Below are positions 7,288 through 12,059 of a DNA stretch of 64,000 bases, piece by piece. The stretch spans positions 53,551-117,550 of the forward strand of contig JAKOVA010000123.1 of NCBI GenBank assembly GCA_029782335.1, given 5' to 3'. Within the stretch, counting starts at the first letter, position 1; each line of letters opens with the position of its first letter. The notes below the pieces were generated by a model. It was not told where the DNA came from and did not search any database. It saw only the letters and a program-made list of their open reading frames with translations. This stretch comes from Actinomycetes bacterium (lineage in GTDB: Bacteria > Actinomycetota > Acidimicrobiia > Acidimicrobiales > Microtrichaceae). Position numbers and translations under genes: made by a program.

Positions 7288-8094
7288 TCAGGCTAAGCGT
7301 TCGGGTGCATAGACGTTCAGGGACGTCCCCCGCCCGAACCCGGCGAGGGCCAGGCCGGCCCGTCGCGCCGTCAGGACCGCCAACTCGGTGGGCGCACTGA
7401 CCGACACCATCGTCGAGAAGCCCGCCGCCCAGGCCTTCACCACCAGCTCGAAACTGGCCCGACCGCTGACGAACAGGCCCATCCCCGAGGCCGGCAGGCT
7501 CCCGTCGAGCGCCAACCGCCCGACCACCTTGTCGACGGCATTGTGCCGGCCGACGTCTTCGCGCACCAGCACCACGGTGCCGTCCGCCGTGAAGCTGGCT
7601 GCGGCATGGACCGCACCGGTGGTGGCGAAGAGCTGCTGGTGGGGGCGAACCCGCTCGGGCATGCCGGCCAGGACGTCGATCGCCATGAGGGGTGATGCCG
7701 GCATGGCGTCCAACCGTGCCGCCACGGTGTCGATGGCCTCCGACCCGCACAGCCCGCAACTGCTCGTGGTGGTGCCGAGGCGTGGCGTCGGCGGCGGCGC
7801 GCCCGGCGCGCTCACGGTGACCACGTTGAACTCGGTGGCGCTGGCCGTGCCGGTCGCGCAATAGCGCACGCCTGACACGGCAGCGTCGCCCAGCAGTCCC
7901 TCGCTGTGGCAGAACCCGACGGCCAGCTCGAAGTCGTGCCCGGGCGTGCGCATCGTGGTCGCCACCGTCACCTCGTTGAGCTGGACGGTCAGCGGCTCCT
8001 CGACCGCCAGCTCGTCGGGCCGCCGGCGGACCTCCCCGGGGCGCGCCGTATCGAGCTTGGACACCAGCACGGTGACGCGTCGGCGGCGGGCCAT
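7288..8094 (-). CDS. fdhD: FdhD sulfurtransferase (formate dehydrogenase accessory)
   Basis: CGLCGSEAIDTV, FELAVGFCHSEGLL, VREDVGRHNAVDKVVGRL. Confidence 0.9.
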   Translation of the reverse strand: MARRRRVTVLVSKLDTARPGEVRRRPDELAVEEPLTVQLNEVTVATTMRTPGHDFELAVGFCHSEGLLGDAAVSGVRYCATGTASATEFNVVTVSAPGAPPPTPRLGTTTSSCGLCGSEAIDTVAARLDAMPASPLMAIDVLAGMPERVRPHQQLFATTGAVHAAASFTADGTVVLVREDVGRHNAVDKVVGRLALDGSLPASGMGLFVSGRASFELVVKAWAAGFSTMVSVSAPTELAVLTARRAGLALAGFGRGTSLNVYAPERLA

Positions 8095-8159
8095 CGCGCC
8101 CGACCGTATCGCCCCGACCGGTCCCCGGCCGCCGGAACGGCGCGCAATATGGTGTGCGC

Positions 8160-8948
8160 ATGACCACACCGACCACTGCAGAGAACTACGGGCGGATCGC
8201 CGCTGCCGAGGGCCTGGGCACGGCGCTGCTCATGCTCGGTGGCCCGGGGGTGATGGTCCTCGGCGGGGGTTCGCTCACCGCCATGGCGCTCGGCGGCGGC
8301 CTGACGCTGATGATCCTCGTCTACCTCCTCGGACCGGCGTCGGGCGCTCACCTCAACCCGGCGGTCACCCTCGGGTCGTGGCTGGCGCGTGGCATCAACC
8401 TGCGCTGGGCGGTCACCGCCTGGATCAGCCAGTTCATCGGGGGCATCGCCGGCGCGGCGATGATCTGGGGCATCGCCAGCGGGCGCAAGCCCTACGTTCG
8501 CGGCAACTTCGCTGCCAACGGCTTCCGCCGAGTCGCCGATGGCCAGGTGTTCTCCAGCATGGGCGCGGCCATGACCGTGGAGGTGATCTTCACCGCCCTC
8601 CTGGTGATGGTGTACCTGTTCGCCGCCAAGCGACGCTTCGCTCCCAGCATGGTGGGCGTCGTCGTCGGCGCGGCGCTGGCCCTCGGCTGGCTGGTGACCG
8701 GAGCCGTGGACGGCGGGTCGATGAATCCGGCACGCAGCCTGGCGTCGGCCATCTTCGCCGACACCACCCCGAGCGCCCTCGGCCAGGTGTGGGTGTTCAT
8801 CCTGTTCCCGCTGATCGGCGCGGTCGTCGGGGTCGTCGCCTGGCTGATCGTCGACGAGGCCCGTCTCGAGGACACCCTGCTGGCCGACGTCCCGGGTGCC
8901 GAGGCGGTCCGCGACGCCGCCGCCAGCGTCGACAACGCCATCGACTGA
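8160..8948 (+). CDS. MIP family channel / aquaporin
   Basis: Two NPA motifs: SGAHLNPAVTLG and GGSMNPARSLA; six hydrophobic helices. Confidence 0.9.
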   Translation: MTTPTTAENYGRIAAAEGLGTALLMLGGPGVMVLGGGSLTAMALGGGLTLMILVYLLGPASGAHLNPAVTLGSWLARGINLRWAVTAWISQFIGGIAGAAMIWGIASGRKPYVRGNFAANGFRRVADGQVFSSMGAAMTVEVIFTALLVMVYLFAAKRRFAPSMVGVVVGAALALGWLVTGAVDGGSMNPARSLASAIFADTTPSALGQVWVFILFPLIGAVVGVVAWLIVDEARLEDTLLADVPGAEAVRDAAASVDNAID

Positions 8949-8992
8949 ACGGTCCCATCCACCGCCGGCGGGCGACGGTGCGGGGTTGTCCG

Positions 8993-9019
8993 TTAGCACT
9001 CCATGCAATAGAGTGCTAG
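8993..9019. promoter_or_regulatory. CIRCE operator (HrcA binding site)
   Basis: TTAGCACTC-N9-GAGTGCTAG 81 nt upstream of groEL, 8/9 match in each arm to consensus TTAGCACTC-N9-GAGTGCTAA or better. Confidence 0.93.
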
Positions 9020-9039
9020 CACTCGGACATGGAGAGTGA

Positions 9040-10719
<1,680 letters not shown>

Positions 10720-10738
10720 GTCCAACCTGACGCACGCC

Positions 10739-10775
10739 ACGAGGGGGCGGCGGGCTTCGGCCCCCGCCCCCTCGT
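10739..10775 (+). terminator. GC-rich hairpin terminator after groEL
   Basis: ACGAGGGGGCGGCGGGC-TTCG-GCCCCCGCCCCCTCGT, near-perfect stem with one bulge just downstream of the groEL stop; no clear U-tract. Confidence 0.7.
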
Positions 10776-10808
10776 CGCGCCCGCGCCGGCCCCACCATCG
10801 GCGATCTT

Positions 10809-10849
10809 GTCGTGACAAGTTCGCCACGTCGTGAACTTGTCACGACAAG
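10809..10849. repeat. 41-nt direct repeat copy 1 containing palindrome arms
   Basis: GTCGTGACA-AGTTCGC-CACGTCG-TG-AACTTGTCACGACAAG; lies within a 21-bp-arm inverted repeat 10802..10853 (CGATCTTGTCGTGACAAGTTC / GAACTTGTCACGACAAGATCG). Confidence 0.85.
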
Positions 10850-11682
10850 ATCGGCGGACGGTGCCGCCACGATGGCGCCGGTGTCCTCTGTGCGGCGTGG
10901 CAGTTGGGACGGCTCCCCGCCGGCACGGGCGGCTGATGGACCAGCTGGCCGACTTGCTGGCCGACCTCGGCGGCGGTGCCGCCTGCCGATCGACCGCGGC
11001 AGCTCTGCATCAGTTTCCCGGGTACCGCCTCGAACGACCGTTCCACGTCGTGTTGGAGCGACCTCGGCGTCTCGTTCGGGTCAACCACCACCTGCACACC
11101 TCGACGGCGCTCGAGCGGGTCGACCTGTGCACCCTCGAGGGCGTCCGGGCGACCTCGCCCAGCCGAACGATCATCGACCTGGCCAGCCGCTCGACGCCCG
11201 ACCACACTCGGGCCCTGATCGCCTTCGCCACGGGAGCGGGCCTGACGAGTGTCGACCTGCTCTTCCGGCGCATTGCCGCACTCCGGTCACGCGGCCGCGC
11301 TGGCGTACGCCCGACGCTGGCCGTCCTGGCGAACATCGAGGCCGGGTCGAACCGTCCATCGTGGTTGGAGCGAGAGTTCCTCGAACTGCTCCAGAGCGCC
11401 GGCCTCCCGCGTCCGTCGACCGAGCAGGTGCTGGCCCGCCGTGGCACGCACTTGATCCGCGTCGACGCGCACTTCGACGGCACGCCGCTCGTCGTCGAGC
11501 TGCTCGGCTACGCCTTCCATCGCACGGTCATGCAGATGGAAACCGATGCCGAGCGACTCAACCGGCTGCAGATGGCCGGCTACGTCGTGCTCCAGTTCAC
11601 GTACCTGCAGGTTGCCGAGCGCCCGGACTGGGTGGTTGAGGAGGTCCGCGCCGCCCTCCACCACTTTTCGGTCGTGACATGA
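10831..11682 (+). CDS. DUF559-like (Vsr/REase-fold) protein with AbiEi-like N-terminal region
   Basis: C-terminal RPSWLEREFLELLQSAGLPRPSTEQVL...IRVDAHFDGTPLVVELLGYAFH...MQMETDAERLNRLQMAGYVVLQFTYLQV matches the actinobacterial DUF559 endonuclease-like pattern (E...D-x-H...E-L-x-G); start may be GTG 10831 or ATG 10936. Confidence 0.75.
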   Translation: MNLSRQDRRTVPPRWRRCPLCGVAVGTAPRRHGRLMDQLADLLADLGGGAACRSTAAALHQFPGYRLERPFHVVLERPRRLVRVNHHLHTSTALERVDLCTLEGVRATSPSRTIIDLASRSTPDHTRALIAFATGAGLTSVDLLFRRIAALRSRGRAGVRPTLAVLANIEAGSNRPSWLEREFLELLQSAGLPRPSTEQVLARRGTHLIRVDAHFDGTPLVVELLGYAFHRTVMQMETDAERLNRLQMAGYVVLQFTYLQVAERPDWVVEEVRAALHHFSVVT

Positions 11683-11711
11683 ATGGCACGTCGCCAACTT
11701 GTCACGACAAG
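11671..11711. repeat. 41-nt direct repeat copy 2
   Basis: GTCGTGACA-TGAATGG-CACGTCG-CC-AACTTGTCACGACAAG; conserved blocks have exactly the spacing of copy 1. Confidence 0.85.
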
Positions 11712-11783
11712 TTCGCTGTGGGCGGGTGTCAGCCAGTGCCCCGGCGGGGGGGTGGTCAGCCAGCTGCCCTGGCGGGGGGTGGG

Positions 11784-12059
11784 TCAGCCGCCGGCGACGG
11801 CGGGGATGATGCTGACGGTGCTGCCGGCGGGGACGGGCGTGTTCAGCCCATCGAGGTAACGCACGTCGTCGTCGGCGACGAAGACGTTGACGAACTTGCG
11901 CAGCGCGCCGTCCTCGTCGAGCAGGCGGTCACGAAGGCCCGGGTTGGCCGCATCGAGGTTGTCGATCACCTCGGTCAGCGTGGCCCCCTCGACCTGCAGG
12001 CTCGGCGCGCCACCGGTGAGCGGGCGCATCGTGGTGGGGATTCGAACGGTCACGGCCAT
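11784..12059 (-). CDS. MoaD/ThiS family ubiquitin-like protein
   Basis: 91 aa; MAVTVRIPTTMRPLTGG...VNVFVADDDVRYLDGLNTPVPAGSTVSIIPAVAGG with C-terminal Gly-Gly. Confidence 0.85.
   Translation of the reverse strand: MAVTVRIPTTMRPLTGGAPSLQVEGATLTEVIDNLDAANPGLRDRLLDEDGALRKFVNVFVADDDVRYLDGLNTPVPAGSTVSIIPAVAGG

What the first reader, a model, noticed from the sequence alone, without database searches (positions are those of the whole stretch)
10802..11714. DUF559 nuclease-like gene bounded by spacing-matched 41-nt palindromic direct repeats: candidate self-contained mobile cassette
Seen directly: 10809..10849 (GTCGTGACA-N7-CACGTCG-N2-AACTTGTCACGACAAG) recurs at 11671..11711 with identical block spacing. 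The GTG start (10831) falls inside copy 1 and the stop (11680-11682) inside copy 2, so the ORF fits the repeats exactly. Copy 1 is embedded in a 21-bp-arm perfect inverted repeat, and the arms themselves contain CTTGTC-N2-GACAAG palindromes. DUF559 proteins are predicted Vsr/restriction-endonuclease-fold nucleases. A nuclease gene delimited by palindromic repeats could be a homing-like or REP-associated cassette, or a nuclease acting on its own flanking sites. The mobility model is inference.
Basis: partly seen in the sequence, partly recalled or inferred. Interest (0 to 1): 0.76.

Follow-up and report, generated by a model that had tools for sequence, protein, structure and literature searches.

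The report
Palindrome-bounded mobile nuclease gene family
The gene is a worn-out member of a family, spread across actinobacteria and apparently undescribed, in which a DNA-cutting protein fused to an antitoxin-type DNA-binding domain sits between two copies of its own matching palindrome, forming a 1-kb unit that has moved between genome sites and, in some genomes, has scattered lone palindromes.

Summary
The repeats are real. A 21-bp-arm perfect palindrome starts the gene and a decayed copy ends it. The 14-mer occurs nowhere else in this genome. DUF559 genes of relatives carry near-perfect palindromes at both gene ends, about 1 kb apart, with a different sequence at each locus: 38 in 34.9 kb of gene ends, 0 in 88 kb inside, 3 in 341 kb outside. 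A wider set including type strains repeats this.

The proteins are AbiEi (DNA-binding antitoxin) fused to an EDxHD/Vsr-like nuclease; the nearest nuclease structure is homing endonuclease I-Bth0305I. In one genus the palindromes are dispersed, about 20 copies per genome and extragenic. In Blastococcus the same unit sits at two different places, with clean empty sites. A palindrome segment covaries on both arms and is largely genome-specific.

Best reading: a REP/RAYT-like gene-palindrome system with an unrelated nuclease, probably recognising its own palindromes. Recognition and cutting are inferred. The window copy has lost its wHTH, so it is probably inactive. No matching open-access paper was found.

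The parts
10802..10853 (.). upstream terminal palindrome: perfect inverted repeat, 21-nt arms, 10-nt loop
   Evidence: the only palindrome with score 14 or more in the window
10806..10819 (.). CTTGTCGTGACAAG, small palindrome inside the left arm
10836..10849 (.). CTTGTCACGACAAG, small palindrome inside the right arm
10831..11682 (+). ORF: AbiEi C-terminal region plus DUF559/EDxHD nuclease; N-terminal wHTH missing. True start uncertain: homology begins about 10891; in-frame ATG at 10936
11368..11370 (+). conserved Glu (residue 180) of the nuclease core
11464..11466 (+). conserved Asp (residue 212) of the nuclease core
11497..11556 (+). conserved Glu223, His230, Asp239, Arg242
   Evidence: invariant in all aligned proteins, window included
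11671..11715 (.). downstream terminal copy of the palindrome, left half decayed; stop codon 11680-11682 lies inside it
   Evidence: 82% to copy 1; one search score 29 against a cross-locus 99th percentile of 16
11695..11712 (.). AACTTGTCACGACAAGTT, surviving right-hand palindrome of the downstream copy
10802..11715 (+). whole palindrome - AbiEi/DUF559 - palindrome unit (relic, about 0.91 kb; intact relatives 1.01-1.09 kb, one 1.4 kb)

Best explanation
The locus is a decayed member of a family of about 1-kb units found across Actinomycetota: palindrome, gene for an AbiEi (wHTH plus C-terminal domain) fused to an EDxHD/Vsr-like nuclease, same palindrome. Each gene has its own palindrome sequence at both ends. 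In some genomes lone copies of that palindrome are scattered between genes, as with REP elements and RAYT transposases. Shown: architecture, gene-specific matching ends, fold, dispersal in one genus, relocation of a whole unit with palindrome boundaries in Blastococcus, and covariation of a palindrome segment on both arms. Inferred: the AbiEi part binds the palindrome and directs the nuclease to cut or nick there, so that repair or copying spreads either the whole unit or the palindrome alone. The window copy has lost the wHTH and half of one end and is probably inactive.
For: End enrichment: 38 palindromes in 34.9 kb of gene ends, 0 in 88 kb inside, 3 in 341 kb outside. Largely new set with cultured type strains: 31 in 39 kb of ends against 4 in 324 kb (9 of the 31 re-find loci of the first set). 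Ends match within a locus: median score 36 against 9.3 +/- 2.9 between loci, 28 of 34 above the 99th percentile. Domains AbiEi_4/AbiEi_1 plus DUF559/MTES_1575; model similar to AbiEi 6y8q and to the I-Bth0305I catalytic domain 3r3p; E, D, E, H, D, R invariant, window included. Dispersed palindromes: about 21 (TTGGCGCCGGTAAGC) and about 7 (GGAGCGGTTTTTCG) in G009, reversed-pattern control 0; extragenic. Relocation: the same unit at site A in three genomes and at site B in three others, homology ending at the palindromes; site B empty with 24-35 bp in two site-A species and site A without the gene in two site-B species. Covariation: 58 double-change cells against 26 +/- 3.7 shuffled, maximum 38 in 1000. 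AbiEi antitoxins bind inverted repeats (PMC7319586).
Against: Only about a third of sampled DUF559 genes have strong palindromes (25 of 82 fully covered loci), and the trait is scattered on the tree (31 changes against 36-47 shuffled). Matched lone palindromes in genus g9 are at the same sites in related species, so no recent movement was seen there. The Blastococcus empty sites contain no copy of the palindrome, only an unrelated terminator-like hairpin, so simple homing into a pre-existing palindrome is not supported. No target-site duplication was recognised. The window genome has no lone copies.
Confidence: 0.66

Rival explanations
1. Regulatory reading: the palindromes are operators and terminators. 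The AbiEi part represses its own gene through the upstream palindrome, and the downstream copy is a terminator or second operator. The unit is not a mobile element.
For: AbiEi antitoxins autoregulate through inverted repeats (PMC7319586). One of seven ordinary AbiEi-AbiEii operons on plasmids has an operator-like inverted repeat just upstream (L369). Many units lie between convergent genes, as at thiolase-recR.
Against: None of the seven AbiEi-AbiEii operons has a matched palindrome pair. It does not explain the same sequence at the 3' end, the dispersed lone copies or the relocation with boundaries at the palindromes. No T-run follows the hairpins as in intrinsic terminators (sequence).
Confidence: 0.17
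2. Passenger reading: the palindromes are REP or MITE-like repeats moved by some other transposase, and the DUF559 gene is cargo that happened to be caught between two copies.
For: Lone palindromes exist without a neighbouring DUF559 gene. Recombination between two copies is seen at L198.
Against: The same gene family is associated with unrelated palindromes in many genera, and two palindrome families in one genus each pair with their own DUF559 gene. The palindromes shown lack the GTAG tag of RAYT REPs (definition in PMC8266576).
Confidence: 0.1
3. Vsr-like mismatch repair: the protein is a VSP-type repair nuclease like Caulobacter VsrA, and the palindromes are unrelated to its activity.
For: DUF559 protein VsrA of Caulobacter acts in a cytosine-methylation-linked manner (PMC12907096). 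The fold resembles Vsr.
Against: No methyltransferase was identified as a partner (not searched systematically). An AbiEi DNA-binding domain is fused on. The palindrome association is far beyond chance.
Confidence: 0.05
4. Local accident: in this window the repeats arose by a local duplication and hairpin formation and have nothing to do with the gene family.
For: The palindrome sequence is unique to this locus in the genome.
Against: Position, spacing and palindrome quality match the family architecture. The chance of such a palindrome is very small.
Confidence: 0.02

Closest known systems
REPtron (RAYT/TnpA-REP transposase with its REP palindromes)
   Same: a single gene bounded by its cognate palindromes; the same palindromes dispersed between genes in the genome; low-mobility, domesticated-looking behaviour
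   Different: the protein is AbiEi-EDxHD, not a Y1 HUH transposase; palindromes lack the GTAG tag and are near-perfect; copy number about 0-20 rather than hundreds
Free-standing EDxHD homing endonucleases (I-Bth0305I type)
   Same: nuclease fold and catalytic residues; selfish gene-sized unit
   Different: not in an intron, intein or conserved gene; carries an AbiEi DNA-binding domain; flanked by two complete palindromes; empty site lacks the palindrome
Type IV toxin-antitoxin AbiE (AbiEi-AbiEii)
   Same: N-terminal two thirds is AbiEi in sequence and fold
   Different: nuclease fused in place of the AbiEii partner gene; palindromes at both ends rather than an operator only
Vsr / DUF559 VsrA of Caulobacter
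   Same: PD-(D/E)XK Vsr-like catalytic domain
   Different: VsrA context is mismatch repair linked to a cytosine methyltransferase; no palindromes are mentioned in that paper

Membership tests
REPtron (RAYT + REP) | gene bounded by cognate palindromes that also occur dispersed between genes | tested here: met
   not met for the window copy itself, which has no dispersed copies
REPtron (RAYT + REP) | HUH/Y1 tyrosine transposase | tested here: not met
   domains and fold are AbiEi + EDxHD/Vsr-like
REPtron (RAYT + REP) | GTAG-type tetranucleotide next to the palindrome | tested here: not met
   not seen in the palindromes listed (inspection); definition from PMC8266576
Free-standing EDxHD homing endonuclease | EDxHD-type catalytic domain | tested here: met
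   3r3p TM 0.80 by target length, 0.68 for the window model; conserved E, D, E, H, D, R
Free-standing EDxHD homing endonuclease | insertion at the nuclease's own recognition site, which is intact in empty alleles | tested here: not met
   Blastococcus site-B empty alleles lack the palindrome; only one site tested
Free-standing EDxHD homing endonuclease | cuts a long specific DNA site | not testable with these tools
   needs purified protein
Type IV TA system AbiE | AbiEi domain | tested here: met
   PADLOC AbiEi about 1e-20 to 1e-35 for intact relatives; window only the C-terminal part, 9e-9
Type IV TA system AbiE | adjacent AbiEii nucleotidyltransferase toxin gene | tested here: not met
   none recognised among the window ORFs read around the gene, and the thiolase-recR units sit directly between thiolase and recR; contrast the seven true operons
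DNA transposon / insertion sequence | same unit in different genomic places with defined ends | tested here: met
   Blastococcus sites A and B
DNA transposon / insertion sequence | target-site duplication | tested here: inconclusive
   none recognised at the site-B junctions; flanks have diverged
Vsr mismatch-repair nuclease | T:G mismatch nicking linked to a cytosine methyltransferase | not tested

The most novel reading that the evidence does not exclude
A separate class of minimal mobile element: an antitoxin-derived DNA-binding domain joined to a homing-type nuclease that recognises its own terminal palindromes by a genome-specific, co-evolving sequence code (the covarying arm segment), moves as a unit, and spreads lone palindromes as a nuclease-driven counterpart of REP elements.
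Probability: 0.4. Interest if true: 0.9.

Novelty: new variant of a known kind. Interest (0 to 1): 0.78.

Why it matters
DUF559 genes are common in actinobacteria but rarely given a context-based function; in this order most sampled genomes carry several matches. Finding that many are paired with their own palindromes gives the family a testable function and offers a second origin for extragenic palindromes besides RAYT transposases. It would mean REP-like repeats can arise around an unrelated nuclease, so the gene-plus-palindrome design evolved more than once. The covarying, largely genome-specific palindrome segment is a ready natural experiment on how a nuclease and its site change together, and the protein could become a source of long-site-specific DNA-binding nucleases.

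Tried and rejected
Genome-wide search for the window's own 14-mer as a general DUF559 companion: rejected, it occurs at this locus only and 5 other genomes of 148 searched hold unrelated single hits. groEL-moaD empty-site comparison: abandoned because groEL is inverted relative to moaD in the window. First orientation of loci from whole-genome searches was wrong for minus-strand matches; all loci were re-oriented and recounted (supersedes; one search seemed to show flipped genes only because of this). Presence/absence of lone palindromes between g9 species: all matched sites occupied, so no evidence of recent movement; 7 of 23 sites were dropped from that query by a copying slip. Solo-versus-full comparison at L303/L299 and L317/L308: the extra 1.4 kb holds no DUF559 gene, so this is not a solo-versus-full case. 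First profile scan failed for lack of conserved stretches. Plasmid or phage carriage: essentially absent (one Tsukamurella plasmid, one weak phage contig). Literature: no paper in the open-access library links DUF559 with AbiEi, or DUF559 with flanking palindromes.

Full report
OBSERVATION. The repeats described are in the sequence. Copy 1 (10809-10853) and copy 2 (11671-11715) are 82% identical over 45 nt without gaps. Copy 1 is part of a perfect palindrome 10802-10853 with 21-nt arms and a 10-nt loop. No other palindrome of comparable quality exists in the 64 kb; about 4e-6 are expected from base composition. The 14-mer CTTGTCNNGACAAG occurs three times here and nowhere else in the 3.19-Mb assembly, which is 75% complete. 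The ORF 10831-11682 starts and stops inside the copies.

THE REPEAT SEQUENCE IS LOCAL, THE ARCHITECTURE IS NOT. That fails: only 5 other genomes among 148 searched contain the 14-mer, once each. Scanning other DUF559 loci of the same order for any palindrome gave a different result. In 90 loci (orientation corrected), near-perfect palindromes with arms of mostly 15-26 nt lie just before the gene and at its stop codon, about 1.0-1.1 kb apart. Counts are 38 in 34.9 kb of the end bins, 0 in 88 kb inside the gene, and 3 in 341 kb outside. The bins were defined on these data, but an 80-locus set fetched from named genomes repeats the pattern: 31 in 39 kb against 4 in 324 kb. Nine of those 31 re-find loci of the first set. 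The rest include type strains of Blastococcus, Geodermatophilus, Conexibacter and Hamadaea, and Frankiales, Pseudonocardiales and Jatrophihabitans assemblies. About 30% of fully covered loci have a strong palindrome and 10 of 82 have strong ones at both ends; weaker second ends are common. The palindrome at one end aligns with the opposite end of the same locus (median score 36) far better than with other loci (9.3 +/- 2.9); 28 of 34 comparisons exceed the 99th percentile, and the window scores 29.

THE PROTEIN. Intact relatives are about 300 aa: an AbiEi winged helix and AbiEi C-terminal domain followed by a DUF559/MTES_1575 nuclease. A model of the L034 protein (pLDDT 90) matches the AbiEi antitoxin 6y8q and, in the C-terminal part, the catalytic domain of homing endonuclease I-Bth0305I (3r3p, TM 0.80 by target length) and Vsr. 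Six residues (E, D, E, H, D, R) are invariant in the alignment, window included. The window protein has lost most of the winged helix: homology begins about residue 21, residues 1-28 are disordered in the model, and its element is about 910 nt rather than 1010-1090. With one palindrome half also decayed, I read it as a relic. Its nuclease residues are still in place.

DISPERSED PALINDROMES. In genus g9 of the same family, the palindrome of the thiolase-recR DUF559 gene (TTGGCGCCGGTAAGC arms) is present about 21 times in G009 and about 10 or more times in most sister genomes. A second palindrome (GGAGCGGTTTTTCG), belonging to another DUF559 gene, is present about 7 times. The reversed-pattern controls gave 0 for the first and at most 1 for the second. 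These lone copies are extragenic: the longest ORF spanning them has a median of 106 aa against 265 aa for random positions. They are old: matched sites in three sister species are all occupied. In Blastococcus there are only a few lone copies per genome, and in the window genome none. This is the pattern of REP elements with their RAYT gene, at lower copy number.

MOVEMENT OF THE UNIT. In Geodermatophilaceae the same unit (73% nucleotide identity) lies at site A in G148 (B. aggregatus), G151 and G153, and at site B in G149, G150 and G152. Homology between the two groups begins and ends at the palindromes. At site B, G148 and G151 have clean empty sites, with 24-35 bp in place of about 1.1 kb. 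At site A, G149 and G152 have no DUF559 gene. The unit therefore exists as a discrete piece gained or lost at two places. The empty sites carry no copy of the palindrome, only a terminator-like hairpin, so insertion into a pre-existing palindrome is not supported there. At thiolase-recR the unit is present in three genera of the family and absent in most others. One distant relative (G035) has a lone 22-bp-arm palindrome in that gap, and the palindromes of the occupied genera are unrelated to each other although the flanks stay 69-84% identical.

A COVARYING SEGMENT. In 25 Geodermatophilaceae palindromes a core (GAACTCGTGGCCATC) is constant, while a segment of about 5 bp further out changes on both arms together: 58 double-change cells against 26 +/- 3.7 in shuffles, maximum 38 of 1000. 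The segment is largely the same for all copies within a genome. Shuffling ignores relatedness, so this figure is not a probability. The same is seen between L034 and L068, whose inner arms differ by matched changes on both arms and at both ends. This is what one expects if one protein in the cell reads all copies.

MECHANISM. Shown: architecture, matching ends, fold, dispersal, relocation, covariation. Known: AbiEi antitoxins bind inverted repeats through their N-terminal domain (PMC7319586). Inferred: the AbiEi part binds the palindrome, the nuclease cuts or nicks there, and repair or recombination then spreads the unit or the palindrome. The rival that the palindromes are operators and terminators explains the upstream copy, but not the matching downstream copy, the scattered copies or the moved unit. 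Seven ordinary AbiEi-AbiEii operons show no palindrome pair.

KNOWN OR NEW. It works like a REPtron and uses a homing-endonuclease-type domain, but it is not a RAYT (no HUH domain; no GTAG tag was seen) and not a standard homing endonuclease (no intact site in the tested empty allele). It is not an AbiE toxin-antitoxin pair (no AbiEii gene next to the units examined). No open-access paper found links DUF559 with AbiEi or with flanking palindromes; subscription papers and preprints could not be searched. I class it as a new variant of a known kind, with a fair chance that it deserves its own class.

LIMITS. Most genomes are incomplete assemblies. Copy numbers were measured in only two groups, relocation in one. 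DUF559 genes outside Actinomycetota were not examined. Only about a third of the sampled genes have strong palindromes, and the trait is scattered on the tree (31 changes against 36-47 shuffled), so loss or decay must be frequent.

Noticed in passing
7288-12059: groEL (with an aquaporin-like gene before it) is inverted relative to fdhD and moaD compared with relatives, where moaD, groEL and fdhD run in tandem; the DUF559 unit sits at one breakpoint of this inversion.
   Followed up: partly
L026, L032, L071, L075 between upstream palindrome and start codon: A second inverted repeat of the type GCTTCCCCC...GGGGGAAGC appears to pair with the Shine-Dalgarno region and might hold down translation of the nuclease gene.
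   Followed up: no
L168:1443-1489 (locus oriented with recR on the minus strand): Lone 22-bp-arm palindrome (TTCTGTGAAGGG...) in the thiolase-recR gap of G035, where other genera carry the whole unit; its outer arms resemble those of units in other genomes.
   Followed up: partly
L198, L200, L204: In G009 several lone palindromes sit next to a different repeated hairpin (GGACCGAACCCTGCAGGTTCGGTCC), some beside sequences that look like tRNA genes.
   Followed up: no
L198:1007-3468: Two direct copies of the palindrome 2.4 kb apart in G009 flank a segment missing in G027, where a single copy remains, as expected from recombination between copies.
   Followed up: partly
L369:1414: A perfect 14-bp-arm operator-like inverted repeat just upstream of an ordinary AbiEi-AbiEii operon on a Streptomyces plasmid.
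   Followed up: no
   Followed up: no
11737-11792: A 28-bp tandem duplication rich in G directly after the unit.
   Followed up: no
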